A DNA stretch of 64,000 nucleotides, from the NCBI GenBank assembly GCA_030690415.1, contig JAUYGZ010000019.1:62001-126000 (forward strand), in the 5' to 3' direction. This DNA comes from a bacterium. Lineage in GTDB: Bacteria > Patescibacteriota > Gracilibacteria > JAUYGZ01. Below, piece after piece: positions 11,107-59,654 of the stretch. Under the pieces are notes generated by a model. The model ran no database searches, was not told the origin of the DNA, and saw only the letters and a list, made by a program, of their open reading frames with translations. A program made the translations under genes and the position numbers. Each line of letters begins with the position of its first letter. The stretch's first letter is position 1.

Positions 11107-11330
11107 GATATGAAATCAAAACTAAAAACCAATTCAGATGATGTCTCTGCAGGGCGTCTCTCATATCGGTTGGAGTTGTAGGAGTATCACTCAGGCGCGG
11201 GGTAAACCAAAGGAACTTTCCACACGGATAGGGCCTGTTTTCGTGTATCGGGATTCAGGACCGCCCTTCGCTTCGCGGGGTAAACCTCTCTTAAGAACTT
11301 AAGAACCTAACAACACTAACAACCTAAAAC

Positions 11331-11384
11331 CCTACAACCTACAACCTACAACCTACAACCTACAACCTACAACCTACAACCTAA
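11331..11384 (+). repeat. (CTACAAC)n tandem array in the gene leader
   Basis: About seven near-perfect units of the 7-mer AACCTAC end 27 bases before the surface-protein ATG at 11411. Degenerate units run back to about 11300. The 224 bases between the promoter and the array hold no ORF. The same 7-mer recurs ahead of uppP, rsmE and htpX. Confidence 0.85.
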
Positions 11385-35778: not shown

Positions 35779-36267
35779 GGTTGTCGGTTATCGGGAGTAG
35801 GTTGTAGACGGTATTAGAAAAAATGTTAGAAAAGCTGCTGAGAGAGCCTATTCAACATCCTCATGACACCATCCAACAATTCATCAACACGGGAGCTATC
35901 TTGCACAAACCCCAAACGCTTAGATAATTCAACCTGAGTCTCCAATTCAGCCCCTGAAGCAAAAGCAGTCACAACAAAATGACGATAATCCTTACGAGTT
36001 CCTCTCCTATTTCCTTCGGCAATATTAGATGGTATCGAAACCACCGATCTTCTCATCTGTGAACTTAAACCATATACTTCTTCCTTCGGGAAGTTTCTTG
36101 TTAGATCATAAATAGCAAGAACCAAGTCCATCGATTTTTGCCATACCATCAAATTTTTATAAGATAACAACGCCATATTCATTCATTACATCATAAATCA
36201 AAGAAACATTATCATATACTCAAATACATAAAAATAGACCACAACCTACTCCCGACAACCGACAACC
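35779..36267. repeat. inverted-repeat-bounded four-helix-bundle element 1
   Basis: 27-bp ends at 35779-35805 (GGTTGTCGGTTATCGGGAGT...) and 36241-36267 are reverse complements with a single mismatch. They enclose one minus-strand four-helix-bundle gene between lemA and htpX. No target duplication is clear. The right end closes 4 bases before the htpX ATG. Confidence 0.85.
35826..36182 (-). CDS. four-helix-bundle protein (23S rRNA intervening-sequence / S23 family), copy 1
   Basis: 118 residues with the family pattern: NLMVWQKSMDLVLAIYDLTR, FPKEEVYGLSSQMRRSVVSI, PSNIAEGNRRGTRKDY, and a last helix AELETQVELSKRL. This family is encoded inside intervening sequences of some 23S rRNA genes and is related to the avd accessory protein of diversity-generating retroelements; its biochemical role is unclear. 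No rRNA gene or reverse transcriptase is near. It is the only gene in element 1. Confidence 0.95.
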   Translation of the reverse strand: MNMALLSYKNLMVWQKSMDLVLAIYDLTRNFPKEEVYGLSSQMRRSVVSIPSNIAEGNRRGTRKDYRHFVVTAFASGAELETQVELSKRLGFVQDSSRVDELLDGVMRMLNRLSQQLF

Positions 36268-37663: not shown

Positions 37664-38506
37664 TCAGGAGCTGGAGTGAAGAAGGAACCAATACCCATTT
37701 ATCATCAATAAATAGCCAACGAAAACCCACAGGCTCCTTTTTCTCAAAAATTTCAACATCCCATAAATGCAGACAAGACTCACCAACATGGAGCTTCCGA
37801 AACCAACCGCCAAGGCTCCTCCGCTTACCATCTGGCCTCCATTGACGGCCCCGAACAGATCCTTCGAAAGAAATATCGTCGCCCCTGCAATAGCCGGAAT
37901 CGCCATCAAAAAAGCAAACTTGGCCGCCGCCTCACGCTCCAGCCCACCCAAAAGCCCCCCCACAATAGTCGACCCACTCCTGGAAATCCCCGGAATAATC
38001 GCCATGACCTGAAAAAATCCCATGAGAAGTGCGGTCTTCAGAGAGTTCATTTGGGTTTCTTTGCGTTTTCCAAAGACTTCTGCCAAAACCAGCAGCACGG
38101 CCGTCACTCCCATCATACCGATAACCACCGAAGCCGAACGAAAATACTGTTCGATCACCTCTTTCAAAAAAGGAGCCAAAAAGACCACCGGAAGCGTCGC
38201 GACGATCAGGTACCAGACCTGCTCTCTCGGATTATCCGGATTCCTCAGCTCCTGTCGGCCCTCCGGCTTCAGCATTTTCTTCATATCAATCCAGAGTCCC
38301 TTCGCCATCCCCACCAAAGTACCCCGGAAGTACAATATCAGTGCCATCAGAGTCCCCGCGTGAAGCACCACATCGAAGCTGAGCAATCCTTCAACATTGA
38401 GCCCCAAAAACGTTTCAGCAAGAACTAAATGTCCTGAGCTGCTAATCGGAAGGAACTCAGTGGCACCCTGGATGATACCGAGAATGAGGGCTTGTAATAA
38501 GGTCAT
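37664..38506 (-). CDS. uppP: undecaprenyl-diphosphatase UppP (BacA)
   Basis: Recycles the lipid carrier undecaprenyl-PP to undecaprenyl-P at the membrane. The 280 residues contain the two diagnostic blocks: GATEFLPISSSGHLVLAE (about residues 14-31) and IPGISRSGSTIVGGLL (about 167-182), plus FDVVLHAGTLMA, and eight membrane helices. The ATG at 38506 directly follows a run of the CTACAAC repeat. It supplies carrier to the sugar transferase at 31.4 kb and to peptidoglycan synthesis. Confidence 0.96.
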   Translation of the reverse strand: MTLLQALILGIIQGATEFLPISSSGHLVLAETFLGLNVEGLLSFDVVLHAGTLMALILYFRGTLVGMAKGLWIDMKKMLKPEGRQELRNPDNPREQVWYLIVATLPVVFLAPFLKEVIEQYFRSASVVIGMMGVTAVLLVLAEVFGKRKETQMNSLKTALLMGFFQVMAIIPGISRSGSTIVGGLLGGLEREAAAKFAFLMAIPAIAGATIFLSKDLFGAVNGGQMVSGGALAVGFGSSMLVSLVCIYGMLKFLRKRSLWVFVGYLLMINGYWFLLHSSS

Positions 38507-38664
38507 AGGTTGTAGGTTGTAGGTTGTAGGTTGTAAGTGGTGAGTAGCAGATAACTCTCAAGAATCGATTATCTGAAGTAGACTTGTATATCCTCTTTCA
38601 CCCTGTGTAGTCTATCGAAGACCCCTCATAACTACAACCTACTCCCTACCACCTACCCCCTCCC
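38507..38664. repeat. facing low-complexity repeats between uppP and rsmE
   Basis: GGTTGTA units (38507-38536) face ACAACCTACTCCC and related units (38634-38663) across a 97-base centre without any gene. ACAACCTACTCCC is shared exactly with the right end of four-helix-bundle element 1 (36241-36253). It looks like an empty bracket of the same repeat family. Confidence 0.7.
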
Positions 38665-39378
38665 ATGCATCGCTTCTTCATCGACCCCCACAGCCTCAAC
38701 AACCAACATTTCCGAACGACCGATAAAGAACTCTGCCACCAGGTCAGCAAAGTGCTGAAAATGAGTGCCGGAAAAAAAATCATCTTCTGCGACAACACGG
38801 AACACGAGTACCTGGCCGAATGGACTATCGTGAGCAGATCAGAATGTTCAGCCAACATCCTCGAAAAGAACTTCAAACCTGATATCGGCAGCCTAAAGCC
38901 CGTCCACCTCTTCGTGCCACCCCTGAAGAATCAAAACCGCTGGGAACTCATGCTCGAGAAAGGAACTGAGATCGGCGTCGCCAGCTTTACCCCTCTCATC
39001 ACCGCGAGAACAGAGGTGACCGAATTACGCAAACTGGATCGCCTTCAGCGAATCATCATTGAAGCCGCTGAGCAAAGCGGAAGAACCAAATTACCAACCA
39101 TCAATCCGCCTCTTTCATTCCAACATGCAATCAACAATAACTGTAATATCGAAGATACCATTCGATTTATTGCTACCCTTGATAAAGATTCAAAACCTCT
39201 GTCTTCCTCCAAACTCCAAACTCCCATCTCCGAACTTTTTATCGGCCCCGTCGGCGACTTCACCGCGGAAGAAATCCAACAAGCCCTTGACCATGGATTT
39301 TTTGCCGTATCACTTGGACAACAGATAATGCGAACCGAAACTGCGGCTCTTGTTGCGGCCACGCTGTGCCTGAACTAA
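38665..39378 (+). CDS. rsmE: 16S rRNA m3U1498 methyltransferase RsmE
   Basis: Methylates U1498 of 16S rRNA using SAM. 237 residues: N-terminal PUA-like part (MHRFFIDPHSL, HQVSKVLKMSAGKKIIFCD), then the SPOUT domain with LMLEKGTEIGV, ERTEVTEL-like ARTEVTELRKL, IIIEAAEQSGRTKLP, LFIGPVGDFTAEE (normally GPEGGF) and VSLGQQIMRTETAALVA. The knot is complete. A run of the AACTCC low-complexity repeat (39208-39238) codes for SKLQTPISEL just before the SAM-binding block, an unusual insertion. Confidence 0.95.
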   Translation: MHRFFIDPHSLNNQHFRTTDKELCHQVSKVLKMSAGKKIIFCDNTEHEYLAEWTIVSRSECSANILEKNFKPDIGSLKPVHLFVPPLKNQNRWELMLEKGTEIGVASFTPLITARTEVTELRKLDRLQRIIIEAAEQSGRTKLPTINPPLSFQHAINNNCNIEDTIRFIATLDKDSKPLSSSKLQTPISELFIGPVGDFTAEEIQQALDHGFFAVSLGQQIMRTETAALVAATLCLN

Positions 39379-53355: not shown

Positions 53356-54180
53356 TTATAGCATTTTTATCCCAAAAAGTCTCCTCGCATTTGCATCCAA
53401 AACCGTATCTACCTCTCCAATCTCCATCTCTTTTAACTTCGCGATCATCTGAGCAGTTTCCACGACATATGCGGGCTCATTCCGCTCTCCCCGATATTTT
53501 TGCGGAGCCAAAAACGGACAATCCGTCTCCACCACAATCCGATCAATCGGTACCATTTTCACGACCTCCCGAAGTTCAGACGCGTTGGGATAAGTCAGCA
53601 CTCCTGAAAAAGACAAAAACCATCCCCTCTTCAAGACCTCCTCAGCCATCTGACGATCACCTGAAAAGCAGTGGAACAAGACCTTACCCTCAACCATCCC
53701 CACCTCATCAAGTATTTGCAAGCAATCTTGCTCGGCTTCATTTAGCTGCCCCCTGCCTTCTGCCAACTGCGAACTCTGTTTTCCCATCCTCAAATGCACC
53801 ACCACCGGCAAATCAAACTCCTGAGCCAACAAGCACTGCTCCCGAAACATCTCCTGCTGCAACCCCGAATCAAAAGGTTCGTGAAAGTAATCAATCCCCG
53901 TCTCCCCCACTCCCACGACCTTGTCACCCGATTCAATCAACTCCCGCATCCAGGCAATACTCTTTTTTCCTTCCCAATACTTCCCATCCGTCGGATGCAG
54001 ACCAACAGTCGCATACAAAGACCCGTACTCAGAGGCCAACTTCACACTCGCCCTGGAACTCTCTTCATCACAGCCTACACAGACAAACGTATGCACCCCT
54101 ACTGCCTTCGCACGCTCGATCACTTCAGGTATCTCTCCCCTGAAATGCTTGAACCAGAGATGACAATGGGTATCTATGAT
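53356..54180 (-). CDS. tatD: TatD-family metal-dependent hydrolase with non-standard start
   Basis: TatD enzymes are Mg-dependent DNases or deoxyribonuclease-like hydrolases. Found: DTHCHLWF (metal His pair), VGVGETGIDYFHE, LPVVVHLR, KVLFHCFSG, and VETDCPFLAPQKYRGERNEP. The HxH block is upstream of the first standard start (GTG at 54123), which would destroy the active site. The frame continues to an ATC-ATA pair at 54180-54175 and then into the AACTCC repeat with no ATG, GTG or TTG. The preceding four-helix-bundle gene stops (TAG) exactly here, so translation may be coupled from ATC or ATA. Confidence 0.85.
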   Translation of the reverse strand: MIDTHCHLWFKHFRGEIPEVIERAKAVGVHTFVCVGCDEESSRASVKLASEYGSLYATVGLHPTDGKYWEGKKSIAWMRELIESGDKVVGVGETGIDYFHEPFDSGLQQEMFREQCLLAQEFDLPVVVHLRMGKQSSQLAEGRGQLNEAEQDCLQILDEVGMVEGKVLFHCFSGDRQMAEEVLKRGWFLSFSGVLTYPNASELREVVKMVPIDRIVVETDCPFLAPQKYRGERNEPAYVVETAQMIAKLKEMEIGEVDTVLDANARRLFGIKML

Positions 54181-54569
54181 AAGTTGGGAGTTTGGAGATT
54201 GGAGTTCGGAGTAAGTTTCGACTCAAGAGCTGATAACATTTTTCGAATCTCAAGAATAAATGCGTGACATTGTTTATATAATTCAAAATTCTTGAGATAC
54301 TTTAAGTTTTCAGCGATAAAAAGCTGAGTTTCCAGTTCTGCGGAAGAGGCTTTAGAATTTCTCAAAAAATAAATAAAATCTTTATTTGTTCTTCGCTGAC
54401 TCCCTTCAGCAATATTTGAAGGTATCGAAACTGCAGATCTTCTCATTTGATTTGTAATCCCATAAACCTCAATTTTTGGGAAATCTTCTGTCAGCTGATA
54501 AACACATGTCACGAGCTGCATGGCTTTCTGCCAAACAATAAGCTTTTGATAATTTGACTCCATACTCAA
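54174..54569 (-). CDS. four-helix-bundle protein (S23 family), copy 2
   Basis: 131 residues: KLIVWQKAMQLVTCVYQLTE, FPKIEVYGITNQMRRSAVSI, PSNIAEGSQRRTNKDF and a C-terminal helix KASSAELETQLFIAENLKYL. The tail SKLTPNSNLQTPNLS is not conserved: it is the translated left repeat of element 2, and the stop lies at the tatD start. As in copy 1, this protein family is known from 23S rRNA intervening sequences. Confidence 0.95.
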   Translation of the reverse strand: MSMESNYQKLIVWQKAMQLVTCVYQLTEDFPKIEVYGITNQMRRSAVSIPSNIAEGSQRRTNKDFIYFLRNSKASSAELETQLFIAENLKYLKNFELYKQCHAFILEIRKMLSALESKLTPNSNLQTPNLS

Positions 54570-54612
54570 ACCTTAAATTTGTCTCCAAACTCCGAACTCC
54601 AATCTCCGAACT
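54189..54612. repeat. inverted-repeat-bounded four-helix-bundle element 2
   Basis: 24-bp ends at 54189-54212 and 54589-54612 are reverse complements with one mismatch (arms contain GGAGATTGGAGTTCGGAGT). They enclose the copy-2 gene between rny and tatD. The right end overlaps the rny stop codon by two bases. The repeat chemistry (AACTCC units) differs from elements 1 and 3. Confidence 0.85.
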
Positions 54613-59078: not shown

Positions 59079-59086
59079 AGGACGAT

Positions 59087-59654
59087 AAGGATGATAAAGA
59101 CGATAAAGACTATAAGGATTCTTTCAATCTGAAACAAATCAGAAAGCAATCAAGTATAAAATATTGCATATACTGAATATCATACTTTATAAAAAGAGAG
59201 ATTCTATAATGCAAAGAGATGAACATCTACGATCGTTCATTTAGAAGACTGATAGTTTGGAGAGAGGCCAAAAAACTCACTATCAACATATACCAAATGA
59301 CCAAGCGATTTCCTAAAGAAGAAAAATACAGCATGACAAATCAGATGAGAAGAGCAGCAAATTCTATCATGGCCAACATTGCTGAAGGAAATGAGAGAAA
59401 ATCAAAGAACGATTGCTGTCGATTCCTTGAGGTTGCGCGGGGATCACTCGTCGAGGTCGATTGTTTCATTGATTTAGCTTATGAACTTACCTATCTTTCT
59501 GATACCGATTTCAAGACTCTTTCTGACCAGATAGCAAAAACAGGATATCTTTTGCATCAGTTTTCAGAAGCACAAGAACGAAATCCAATGAGAAAATAAA
59601 TAAATCCATATCATCATTATCATCCTTATCATCTTTATAGTCCTTATCATCCTT
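59087..59654. repeat. inverted-repeat-bounded four-helix-bundle element 3
   Basis: 33-base ends at 59087-59119 and 59622-59654 match as inverted repeats at 29 of 33 positions; both are built of 9-base GATAAGGAT/GATAAAGAC units. They enclose copy 3 between holB and the phosphofructokinase gene. The left arm abuts the holB start and the right arm ends five bases before the next ATG. Confidence 0.8.
59219..59599 (+). CDS. four-helix-bundle protein (S23 family), copy 3
   Basis: 126 residues: RLIVWREAKKLTINIYQMTK, FPKEEKYSMTNQMRRAANSI, MANIAEGNERKSKNDCCRFL, then GSLVEVDCFIDLAYEL. Diverged from copies 1 and 2, so the three are not recent duplicates. It is on the + strand, while copies 1 and 2 are on the minus strand. 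Confidence 0.95.
   Translation: MNIYDRSFRRLIVWREAKKLTINIYQMTKRFPKEEKYSMTNQMRRAANSIMANIAEGNERKSKNDCCRFLEVARGSLVEVDCFIDLAYELTYLSDTDFKTLSDQIAKTGYLLHQFSEAQERNPMRK

What the first reader, a model, noticed from the sequence alone, without database searches (positions are those of the whole stretch)
54189..54612. Second element of the same design between rny and tatD, with a different repeat
Seen: 24-bp ends (one mismatch) enclose the copy-2 gene; the right end overlaps the rny stop and the left end abuts tatD. The arms are built of AACTCC-type units, unlike element 1. Inference: the element uses or brings whatever local low-complexity repeat is at hand, perhaps by inserting into repeats. The neighbour being RNase Y is notable because rRNA intervening sequences are removed by cellular RNases.
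Basis: partly seen in the sequence, partly recalled or inferred. Interest (0 to 1): 0.75.

Follow-up and report, generated by a model that had tools for sequence, protein, structure and literature searches.

The report
Mobile element with protein-matched repeat ends
Between two ordinary genes of a tiny-genome bacterium sits a small mobile DNA element whose single protein (relatives crystallise with five copies) is flanked by mirror-image strings of 7-letter repeats; the same design recurs across bacteria, and the repeat type goes with the protein type, so the protein probably reads its own ends.

Summary
In detail: 24-nt inverted arms (23/24 paired) built of 7-nt units enclose a 23S-rRNA-IVP gene (PF05635/TIGR02436, "four helix bundle protein") between rny and tatD. 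It belongs to a large class. In 174 IVP loci from many phyla, 44% have strong inverted arms (0% in the same loci 1.4 kb away). The arms are tandem repeats with a period of only 7, 8 or 9, usually AG+N5-7, with the G-rich strand reading towards the gene from both sides. Unit type follows the protein, not the locality: arm similarity tracks protein identity at unrelated sites (Mantel r 0.26, permutation maximum 0.12), and period clusters on the protein tree (14 changes versus 25 shuffled). Cyanobacterial plasmids give filled/empty pairs at five sites, so these are discrete insertions; one site shows a 5-bp duplication. IVP-less hairpins and short arrays of the same unit are scattered in the host genome, including in-frame inside aroC. 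Most likely: a small mobile element related to rRNA intervening sequences, whose IVP (crystal relatives have five chains) binds the end repeats. Which enzyme cuts DNA is unknown; the genome has no detectable RVT_1 reverse transcriptase or Y1 transposase.

The parts
54182..54212 (+). left arm: AGTTGGG AGTTTGG AGATTGG AGTTCGG AGT, period 7, G-rich strand reading toward the gene
54174..54563 (-). IVP (S23 / four helix bundle) gene; ATG at 54563 (TTG 54569 also possible); last ~12 residues are encoded by the left arm and predicted unstructured
54583..54612 (-). right arm: the same 7-mers in inverted orientation (24-nt core 54589-54612); overlaps the rny stop codon
54611..56152 (-). rny (RNase Y) host gene; its TAG stop is the outer edge of the array; the same array follows the rny stop in relative G002
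53356..54180 (-). tatD host gene; no ATG/GTG/TTG start in frame before the conserved IDTHCHL motif (frame continues into the arm as ...SPNSQLIIDTHCHL; first codons ATC ATA)
35779..36267 (-). copy 1: IVP gene 35826-36182 with 27-nt inverted arms (35779-35805 / 36241-36267), GGTTGTC/AGGTTGT 7-mers
59079..59654 (+). copy 3: IVP gene 59219-59599 with inverted period-9 arms (GATAAGGAC type)
38500..38665 (.). IVP-less inverted pair of TAGGTTG 7-mer arrays, 97 nt apart (MITE-like); shares ACAACCTACTCCC-type sequence with copy-1 arms
39206..39235 (+). solo CTCCAAA array (same unit as the element) inside an RNA-methyltransferase (PF04452) ORF
11304..11383 (+). solo AACCTAC array (11 units)

Best explanation
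This is one copy of a widespread family of small (about 0.4-0.5 kb) mobile elements: inverted arm, IVP gene, inverted arm. Each arm is typically about 4-6 tandem units of 7, 8 or 9 nt carrying an AG core. SHOWN: the arms are inverted, their unit and period follow the protein clade and not the place, and the whole unit is present or absent as a block at otherwise near-identical sites. INFERRED: the IVP, an oligomer whose two closest crystal structures have five chains, binds an arm one unit per subunit and so brings the two ends together or protects them; insertion then occurs mostly between genes of an operon, in one case with a 5-bp duplication. The strings of units also supply stop codons and let the element be transcribed with its host operon. 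IVP-less hairpins and solo arrays of the same unit are derivatives or by-products. Whether the IVP also does the DNA chemistry, or borrows a host enzyme, is not known.
For: Inverted arms at 44% of 174 IVP loci, versus 3% of random positions and 0% of positions 1.4 kb away in the same loci. Array periods are only 7 (83), 8 (20) and 9 (18), never 4-6 or 10-12; AG in 36/45 upstream and 30/38 downstream period-7 arrays, versus CT in 9 and 8. Mantel test of protein identity against arm similarity at unrelated sites: r 0.263, permutation maximum 0.116. Period on the protein tree: 14 changes versus 24.9 shuffled, 0/200; 11 of 14 period-9 elements form one clade. Filled/empty pairs on Nostoc-type plasmids, one with GTAAT duplicated at flank identity near 98%. 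IVPs 79-83% identical with the same AGGAGTC unit at three unrelated sites. PDB relatives 2gsc and 2rld, five chains each; median array 4.75 units. Unit family at about 14 loci in this genome, 4 and 21 matches in its two family members, 0 in G003, reversed-pattern control 0.
Against: The duplication is clear at one site only; sites 3 and 4 show none, and sites 2 and 5 are ambiguous. No known nuclease or transposase is encoded. Part of the protein-arm correlation could be common descent of arm and gene rather than binding. About a quarter of IVP loci show neither arms nor an array at the thresholds used (131 of 170 do). At the Flavobacterium gmk-nadD site the whole intergenic block is exchanged, which recombination between species could also produce. 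No binding or excision has been measured. No true empty rny-tatD site was found. The five-unit/five-subunit match may be chance.
Confidence: 0.72

Rival explanations
1. RNA-level element: like the 23S rRNA intervening sequence, the arms pair in the transcript, RNase III cuts the stem, and the freed RNA bound by IVP is copied back by a reverse transcriptase in trans, IVP acting as its relative Avd does in diversity-generating retroelements.
For: Same ORF family and anatomy as the Coxiella IVS (28-bp terminal stem cut by RNase III in vitro, tandem GACAGAT heptamers, selfish-element hypothesis; PMC4990558). Fold match to Avd in the DGR reverse-transcriptase complex, Z 14.6. The window transcript folds with paired arms, z -4.07. 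Both flanking genes co-directional with IVP in 46 of 72 armed loci.
Against: No RVT_1 match in the host genome (98.8% complete). AG polarity is equally strong in both arms, as DNA-level recognition predicts, whereas a sense RNA carries the AG strand in one arm only. Some copies are opposite to both neighbours (6 of 72).
Confidence: 0.15
2. Not mobile in any active sense: arms are regulatory or mRNA-stabilising hairpins of a resident gene, co-evolving by slippage and quasi-palindrome correction, and presence/absence reflects exchange of operon alleles between strains.
For: Flavobacterium gmk-nadD junctions swap the whole stop-to-start interval, with at least 6 changes on supported branches. Unit number differs by two (14 bp) between otherwise near-identical copies L287 and L297.
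Against: The same IVP family plus the same unit at three unrelated sites; block insertions at five plasmid sites; a target duplication at one. IVP-less copies of the unit inside conserved genes.
Confidence: 0.1
3. One reading: the gene inserts into, or recruits, whatever local low-complexity repeat is present.
For: Solo arrays of the same unit exist in the genome.
Against: Arms are inverted; empty sites have no array; unit and period follow the protein.
Confidence: 0.03

Closest known systems
23S rRNA intervening sequences with an S23/IVP ORF (Coxiella, Leptospira)
   Same: same ORF family, about 0.4-0.5 kb, terminal inverted repeats of ~28 bp, heptamer repeats, suspected selfish element (PMC4990558)
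   Different: here the element lies between protein genes, not in rRNA; arms are entire repeat arrays whose unit follows the protein; empty sites and one target duplication seen
[quoted passage not shown]
   Same: 7-nt G-rich units, mostly four units, frequent convergent inverted pairs, function unknown; Xanthomonas campestris also encodes XCC0516, the closest solved relative of this protein (2gsc)
   Different: a text search of the Xanthomonas/Nostoc paper finds no mention of S23 or four-helix genes; the link proposed here was not tested at XCC0516 itself
Avd of diversity-generating retroelements
   Same: fold (Z 14.6; Foldseek probability 1.0)
   Different: 9-11% identity, below the Avd cut-off, no RVT_1 reverse transcriptase found in the genome
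Insertion sequences with MITEs; REP/RAYT; Rickettsia palindromic elements (from general knowledge)
   Same: inverted ends, IVP-less derivatives, dispersed copies, in-frame copies inside genes
   Different: no known transposase; ends are degenerate tandem repeats, different between protein clades

Membership tests
PF05635 / TIGR02436 IVP (four helix bundle protein) | profile score above curated cut-off | tested here: met
   125.5 bits vs 33.8; 124.2 vs 24
PF05635 / TIGR02436 IVP (four helix bundle protein) | four-helix bundle fold | tested here: met
   pLDDT 94.8; 2gsc Z 21.4, 2rld Z 16.9
23S rRNA intervening sequence | insertion inside a 23S rRNA gene | tested here: not met
   lies between rny and tatD
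23S rRNA intervening sequence | excision from RNA by RNase III | not testable with these tools
   only a predicted stem
DGR accessory protein Avd | score above Avd cut-off, with a DGR reverse transcriptase | tested here: not met
   23.4 bits vs 80; no RVT_1 in genome
Insertion sequence | terminal inverted repeats | tested here: met
Insertion sequence | target-site duplication | tested here: inconclusive
   5 bp at plasmid site 1; ambiguous or absent at four others; no empty site for the window copy
Insertion sequence | encodes a known transposase | tested here: not met
   the only ORF of the element is IVP
REP/RAYT | Y1 (IS200-type) tyrosine transposase in the genome | tested here: not met
   no PF01797 match
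STRR-type heptamer repeats | 7-bp tandem units able to form hairpins | tested here: met
   7-mer arms also around IVP genes on Nostoc-group plasmids; identity with the published STRR families was not tested

The most novel reading that the evidence does not exclude
The IVP oligomer (pentamer in crystals of relatives) is itself the recombinase of a new class of transposable element: an Avd-fold protein that reads arrays of about five AG-N5-7 units at each end through one binding site per subunit. The unexplained heptamer repeats of cyanobacteria (STRR), Xanthomonas and others, and the rRNA intervening sequences, are all products of this one system.
Probability: 0.25. Interest if true: 0.95.

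Novelty: new variant of a known kind. Interest (0 to 1): 0.8.

Why it matters
Annotated 'four helix bundle' / 'S23 ribosomal' genes are common across bacteria and have no known role; half of the sampled genomes in this class carry one (124 of 242). If they are the proteins of a mobile element that reads its own repeat ends, three old puzzles become one testable system: the purpose of the ORF in rRNA intervening sequences, the source of dispersed heptamer repeats, and what Avd-like folds do without a reverse transcriptase. The natural series of protein/unit pairs with three periods is a ready-made data set for solving a recognition code.

Tried and rejected
(1) Arms borrowed from local repeats: rejected. 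(2) A role for the RNase Y neighbour: other copies have unrelated neighbours. (3) Clean empty rny-tatD junction: not found; G001 has another repeat there, G002 runs off the contig and only a tatD fragment was found, other class members looked at lack rny-tatD synteny. (4) Phage carriage: no hit in 50,697 phage records. (5) Defence role: no PADLOC match. (6) The ~115-nt hairpin that replaces IVP at gmk-nadD in many Flavobacterium species: I first took its arms for period-8 arrays; a check shows no clear 7-9 period, so I do not count it as an IVP-less copy. (7) Weak PF05635 hits L006 and L007 have no arms and were left out. (8) Residues tied to period: a few columns stand out (z 4-6), but shared ancestry was not removed, so no claim. 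(9) Fold matches beyond 2gsc, 2rld and Avd (for example pectin methylesterase inhibitors, Z ~13) are in the range expected for any helical bundle. (10) Co-orientation with neighbours has no baseline here, so it is weak evidence. (11) Literature searches found no description of free-standing IVP elements with repeat arms; the library lacks most subscription journals.

Full report
WHAT IS THERE. The window (host contig G000:C27, a Patescibacteria-like genome of 1.45 Mb; some members of its class read TGA as a sense codon) carries at 54189-54212 and 54589-54612 two 24-nt arms that are 96% complementary, each a run of 7-nt units. Shuffled flanks never reach this score (0 of 1000). They enclose a gene of the 23S-rRNA-IVP family (PF05635, 125.5 bits; TIGR02436). 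The genome has five strong members of this family. All five are flanked by inverted arrays with different units: AGTTTGG, GGTTGTC and CTGGTTA (period 7), GATAAGGAC (period 9), GAGGAAAT (period 8).

HOW GENERAL. I collected IVP loci from the class and from one-per-species genomes of many phyla. Aligning 500 nt upstream against the reverse complement of 500 nt downstream gives a score of 15 or more in 44% of 174 loci, against 0.7% when flanks are paired at random between loci, 3.2% at random genome positions and 0% at positions 1.4 kb away in the same loci. Array periods are 7 (83), 8 (20) and 9 (18) and nothing else. After aligning units by rotation, which inflates the figure, the first two positions are A and G in most arrays. 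The independent check is polarity: among period-7 arrays AG occurs in 36 of 45 upstream and 30 of 38 downstream, CT in 9 and 8. So the same strand polarity points inward from both sides. Counting arms or arrays, 131 of 170 loci are positive. Half the genomes sampled in the class have an IVP match (124 of 242). The loci were taken from the best-scoring matches, so they are not a random sample of the family.

THE REPEATS BELONG TO THE PROTEIN. Leaving out pairs with similar flanks, arm similarity rises with protein identity: strongly similar arms in 2% of pairs below 40% identity and 55% of pairs at 60-70%; Mantel r 0.263 against a permutation maximum of 0.116. Unit period is clustered on the protein tree (14 changes, 24.9 when shuffled, 0 of 200 as low), and 11 of 14 period-9 elements form one group. 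Elements from a gammaproteobacterium and a Ruminococcus (L135, L178) share TTAGTGG arms with 57% identical proteins. In one genome (G132) two copies at different sites share AGATTACG arms and 74% protein identity. This is shown as association; that it reflects binding is inference.

IT MOVES. Plasmids of Nostoc-type cyanobacteria give the clearest evidence. Site 1: Nostoc linckia and N. carneum read AAAAAGTAATTAACAAAT; Trichormus and Scytonema have at the same place AAAAAGTAAT, the element, GTAATTAACAAAT (flank identity near 98%), a 5-bp duplication with a 0.5% chance of arising by random matching. A third plasmid keeps the left arm and a truncated IVP there (L306). Site 2 and site 5 are two neighbouring junctions of one operon: pC052_D is filled at one and empty at the other, pNsp_c the reverse, with different IVPs and different units (AGGAGTC, AGGGAAA). 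Sites 3 and 4 are also filled/empty pairs, without a clear duplication. The IVPs of L284, L287 and L289 are 79-83% identical, have the same unit and lie at three unrelated places. Others sit between cas6 and cas4, cmr2 and cmr3, nrdB and nrdA. In Flavobacterium the gmk-nadD junction has or lacks the element in close relatives (94% nadD identity), with 9 changes on the tree, at least 6 on supported branches; recombination of the whole interval could explain part of this.

THE SITE IN THE WINDOW. In the same-family genome G001 the rny-tatD junction has no IVP but a different, roughly inverted repeat; in G002 the same GGAGTTN array begins at the rny stop and runs off the contig. So presence of the unit at this junction predates the split from G002 or is recurrent; I cannot date the insertion. 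tatD has no ATG, GTG or TTG in frame before its metal-binding motif and would have to start at ATC or ATA or be translated by coupling to IVP.

SOLO AND IVP-LESS COPIES. The pattern GGAGTTYGGAGTT...GGAG occurs 18 times at about 14 loci in this genome, 4 times in G001, 21 in G002, 0 in G003; the reversed control pattern never. Only one of those loci carries an IVP gene. Several lie in frame inside conserved genes: chorismate synthase (a ten-residue insertion absent from four relatives), a polyA polymerase head domain, an RNA methyltransferase. In G002 an IVP-less inverted pair lies inside priA. In 184 kb of this genome there are 12 arrays of period 7-9; in 160 kb of two genomes without IVP there is one, but G126 with four IVP genes shows only one in 120 kb, so this comparison is small and uneven.

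MECHANISM. The protein is predicted with high confidence as a four-helix bundle closest to XCC0516 (2gsc, Z 21.4) and BT_0352 (2rld, Z 16.9), each with five chains in the crystal, then Avd of a DGR reverse-transcriptase complex (Z 14.6). Arrays have a median of 4.75 units. I infer one unit per subunit. Eleven positions are invariant across 58 proteins, among them Q41, R44, S48, N52, E55, S75 and E78; this could be a working site or a structural core. The genome has no detectable RVT_1 reverse transcriptase or Y1 transposase, which lowers the RNA-copying and REP/RAYT routes but leaves open which enzyme cuts DNA.

RELATION TO WHAT IS KNOWN. The Coxiella rRNA intervening sequence has the same ORF family, a 28-bp terminal stem cut by RNase III in vitro, and tandem GACAGAT heptamers that vary in number between strains (PMC4990558); GACAGAT read as AGATGAC fits AG+N5. 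Heptamer repeats of Xanthomonas (186 arrays, mostly four units, 70 convergent pairs) and Nostoc are described as of unknown role with no mention of this gene family (PMC4692102); STRR hairpins likewise have no known function (PMC2670836). I found no paper on free-standing IVP elements with repeat ends, in a library that lacks most subscription journals. I therefore call it a new variant of the intervening-sequence kind, with a categorically new reading (IVP as recombinase) not excluded.

Noticed in passing
window 54177-54180: tatD lacks a normal start codon before its conserved IDTHCHL motif; the insertion seems to have replaced it, leaving ATC ATA or coupling to the IVP stop.
   Followed up: partly
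L263:1498-1520: A GGAGTTC array is inserted in frame in chorismate synthase (about ten residues), absent from four relatives.
   Followed up: yes
L274:1400-1560: IVP-less inverted pair of the same 7-mer inside priA of G002; G001 has a short array in its priA too (L277).
   Followed up: partly
L283, L286, L292: IVP elements sit between cas6 and cas4 of type I-D and between cmr2 and cmr3 of type III-B CRISPR operons on cyanobacterial plasmids.
   Followed up: no
L213-L234, gmk-nadD junction: A conserved ~115-nt hairpin without a clear 7-9 nt period alternates with the IVP element at this junction in Flavobacterium; its nature is unknown.
   Followed up: partly
L248:12528-12668: IVP-less inverted pair of the period-9 unit, matching window copy 3.
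   Followed up: partly
L005: The fifth IVP copy has a long one-sided TTTCCTCA-type array downstream that is also read as part of an ORF (HFLPSSFLHFFISSF...).
   Followed up: no
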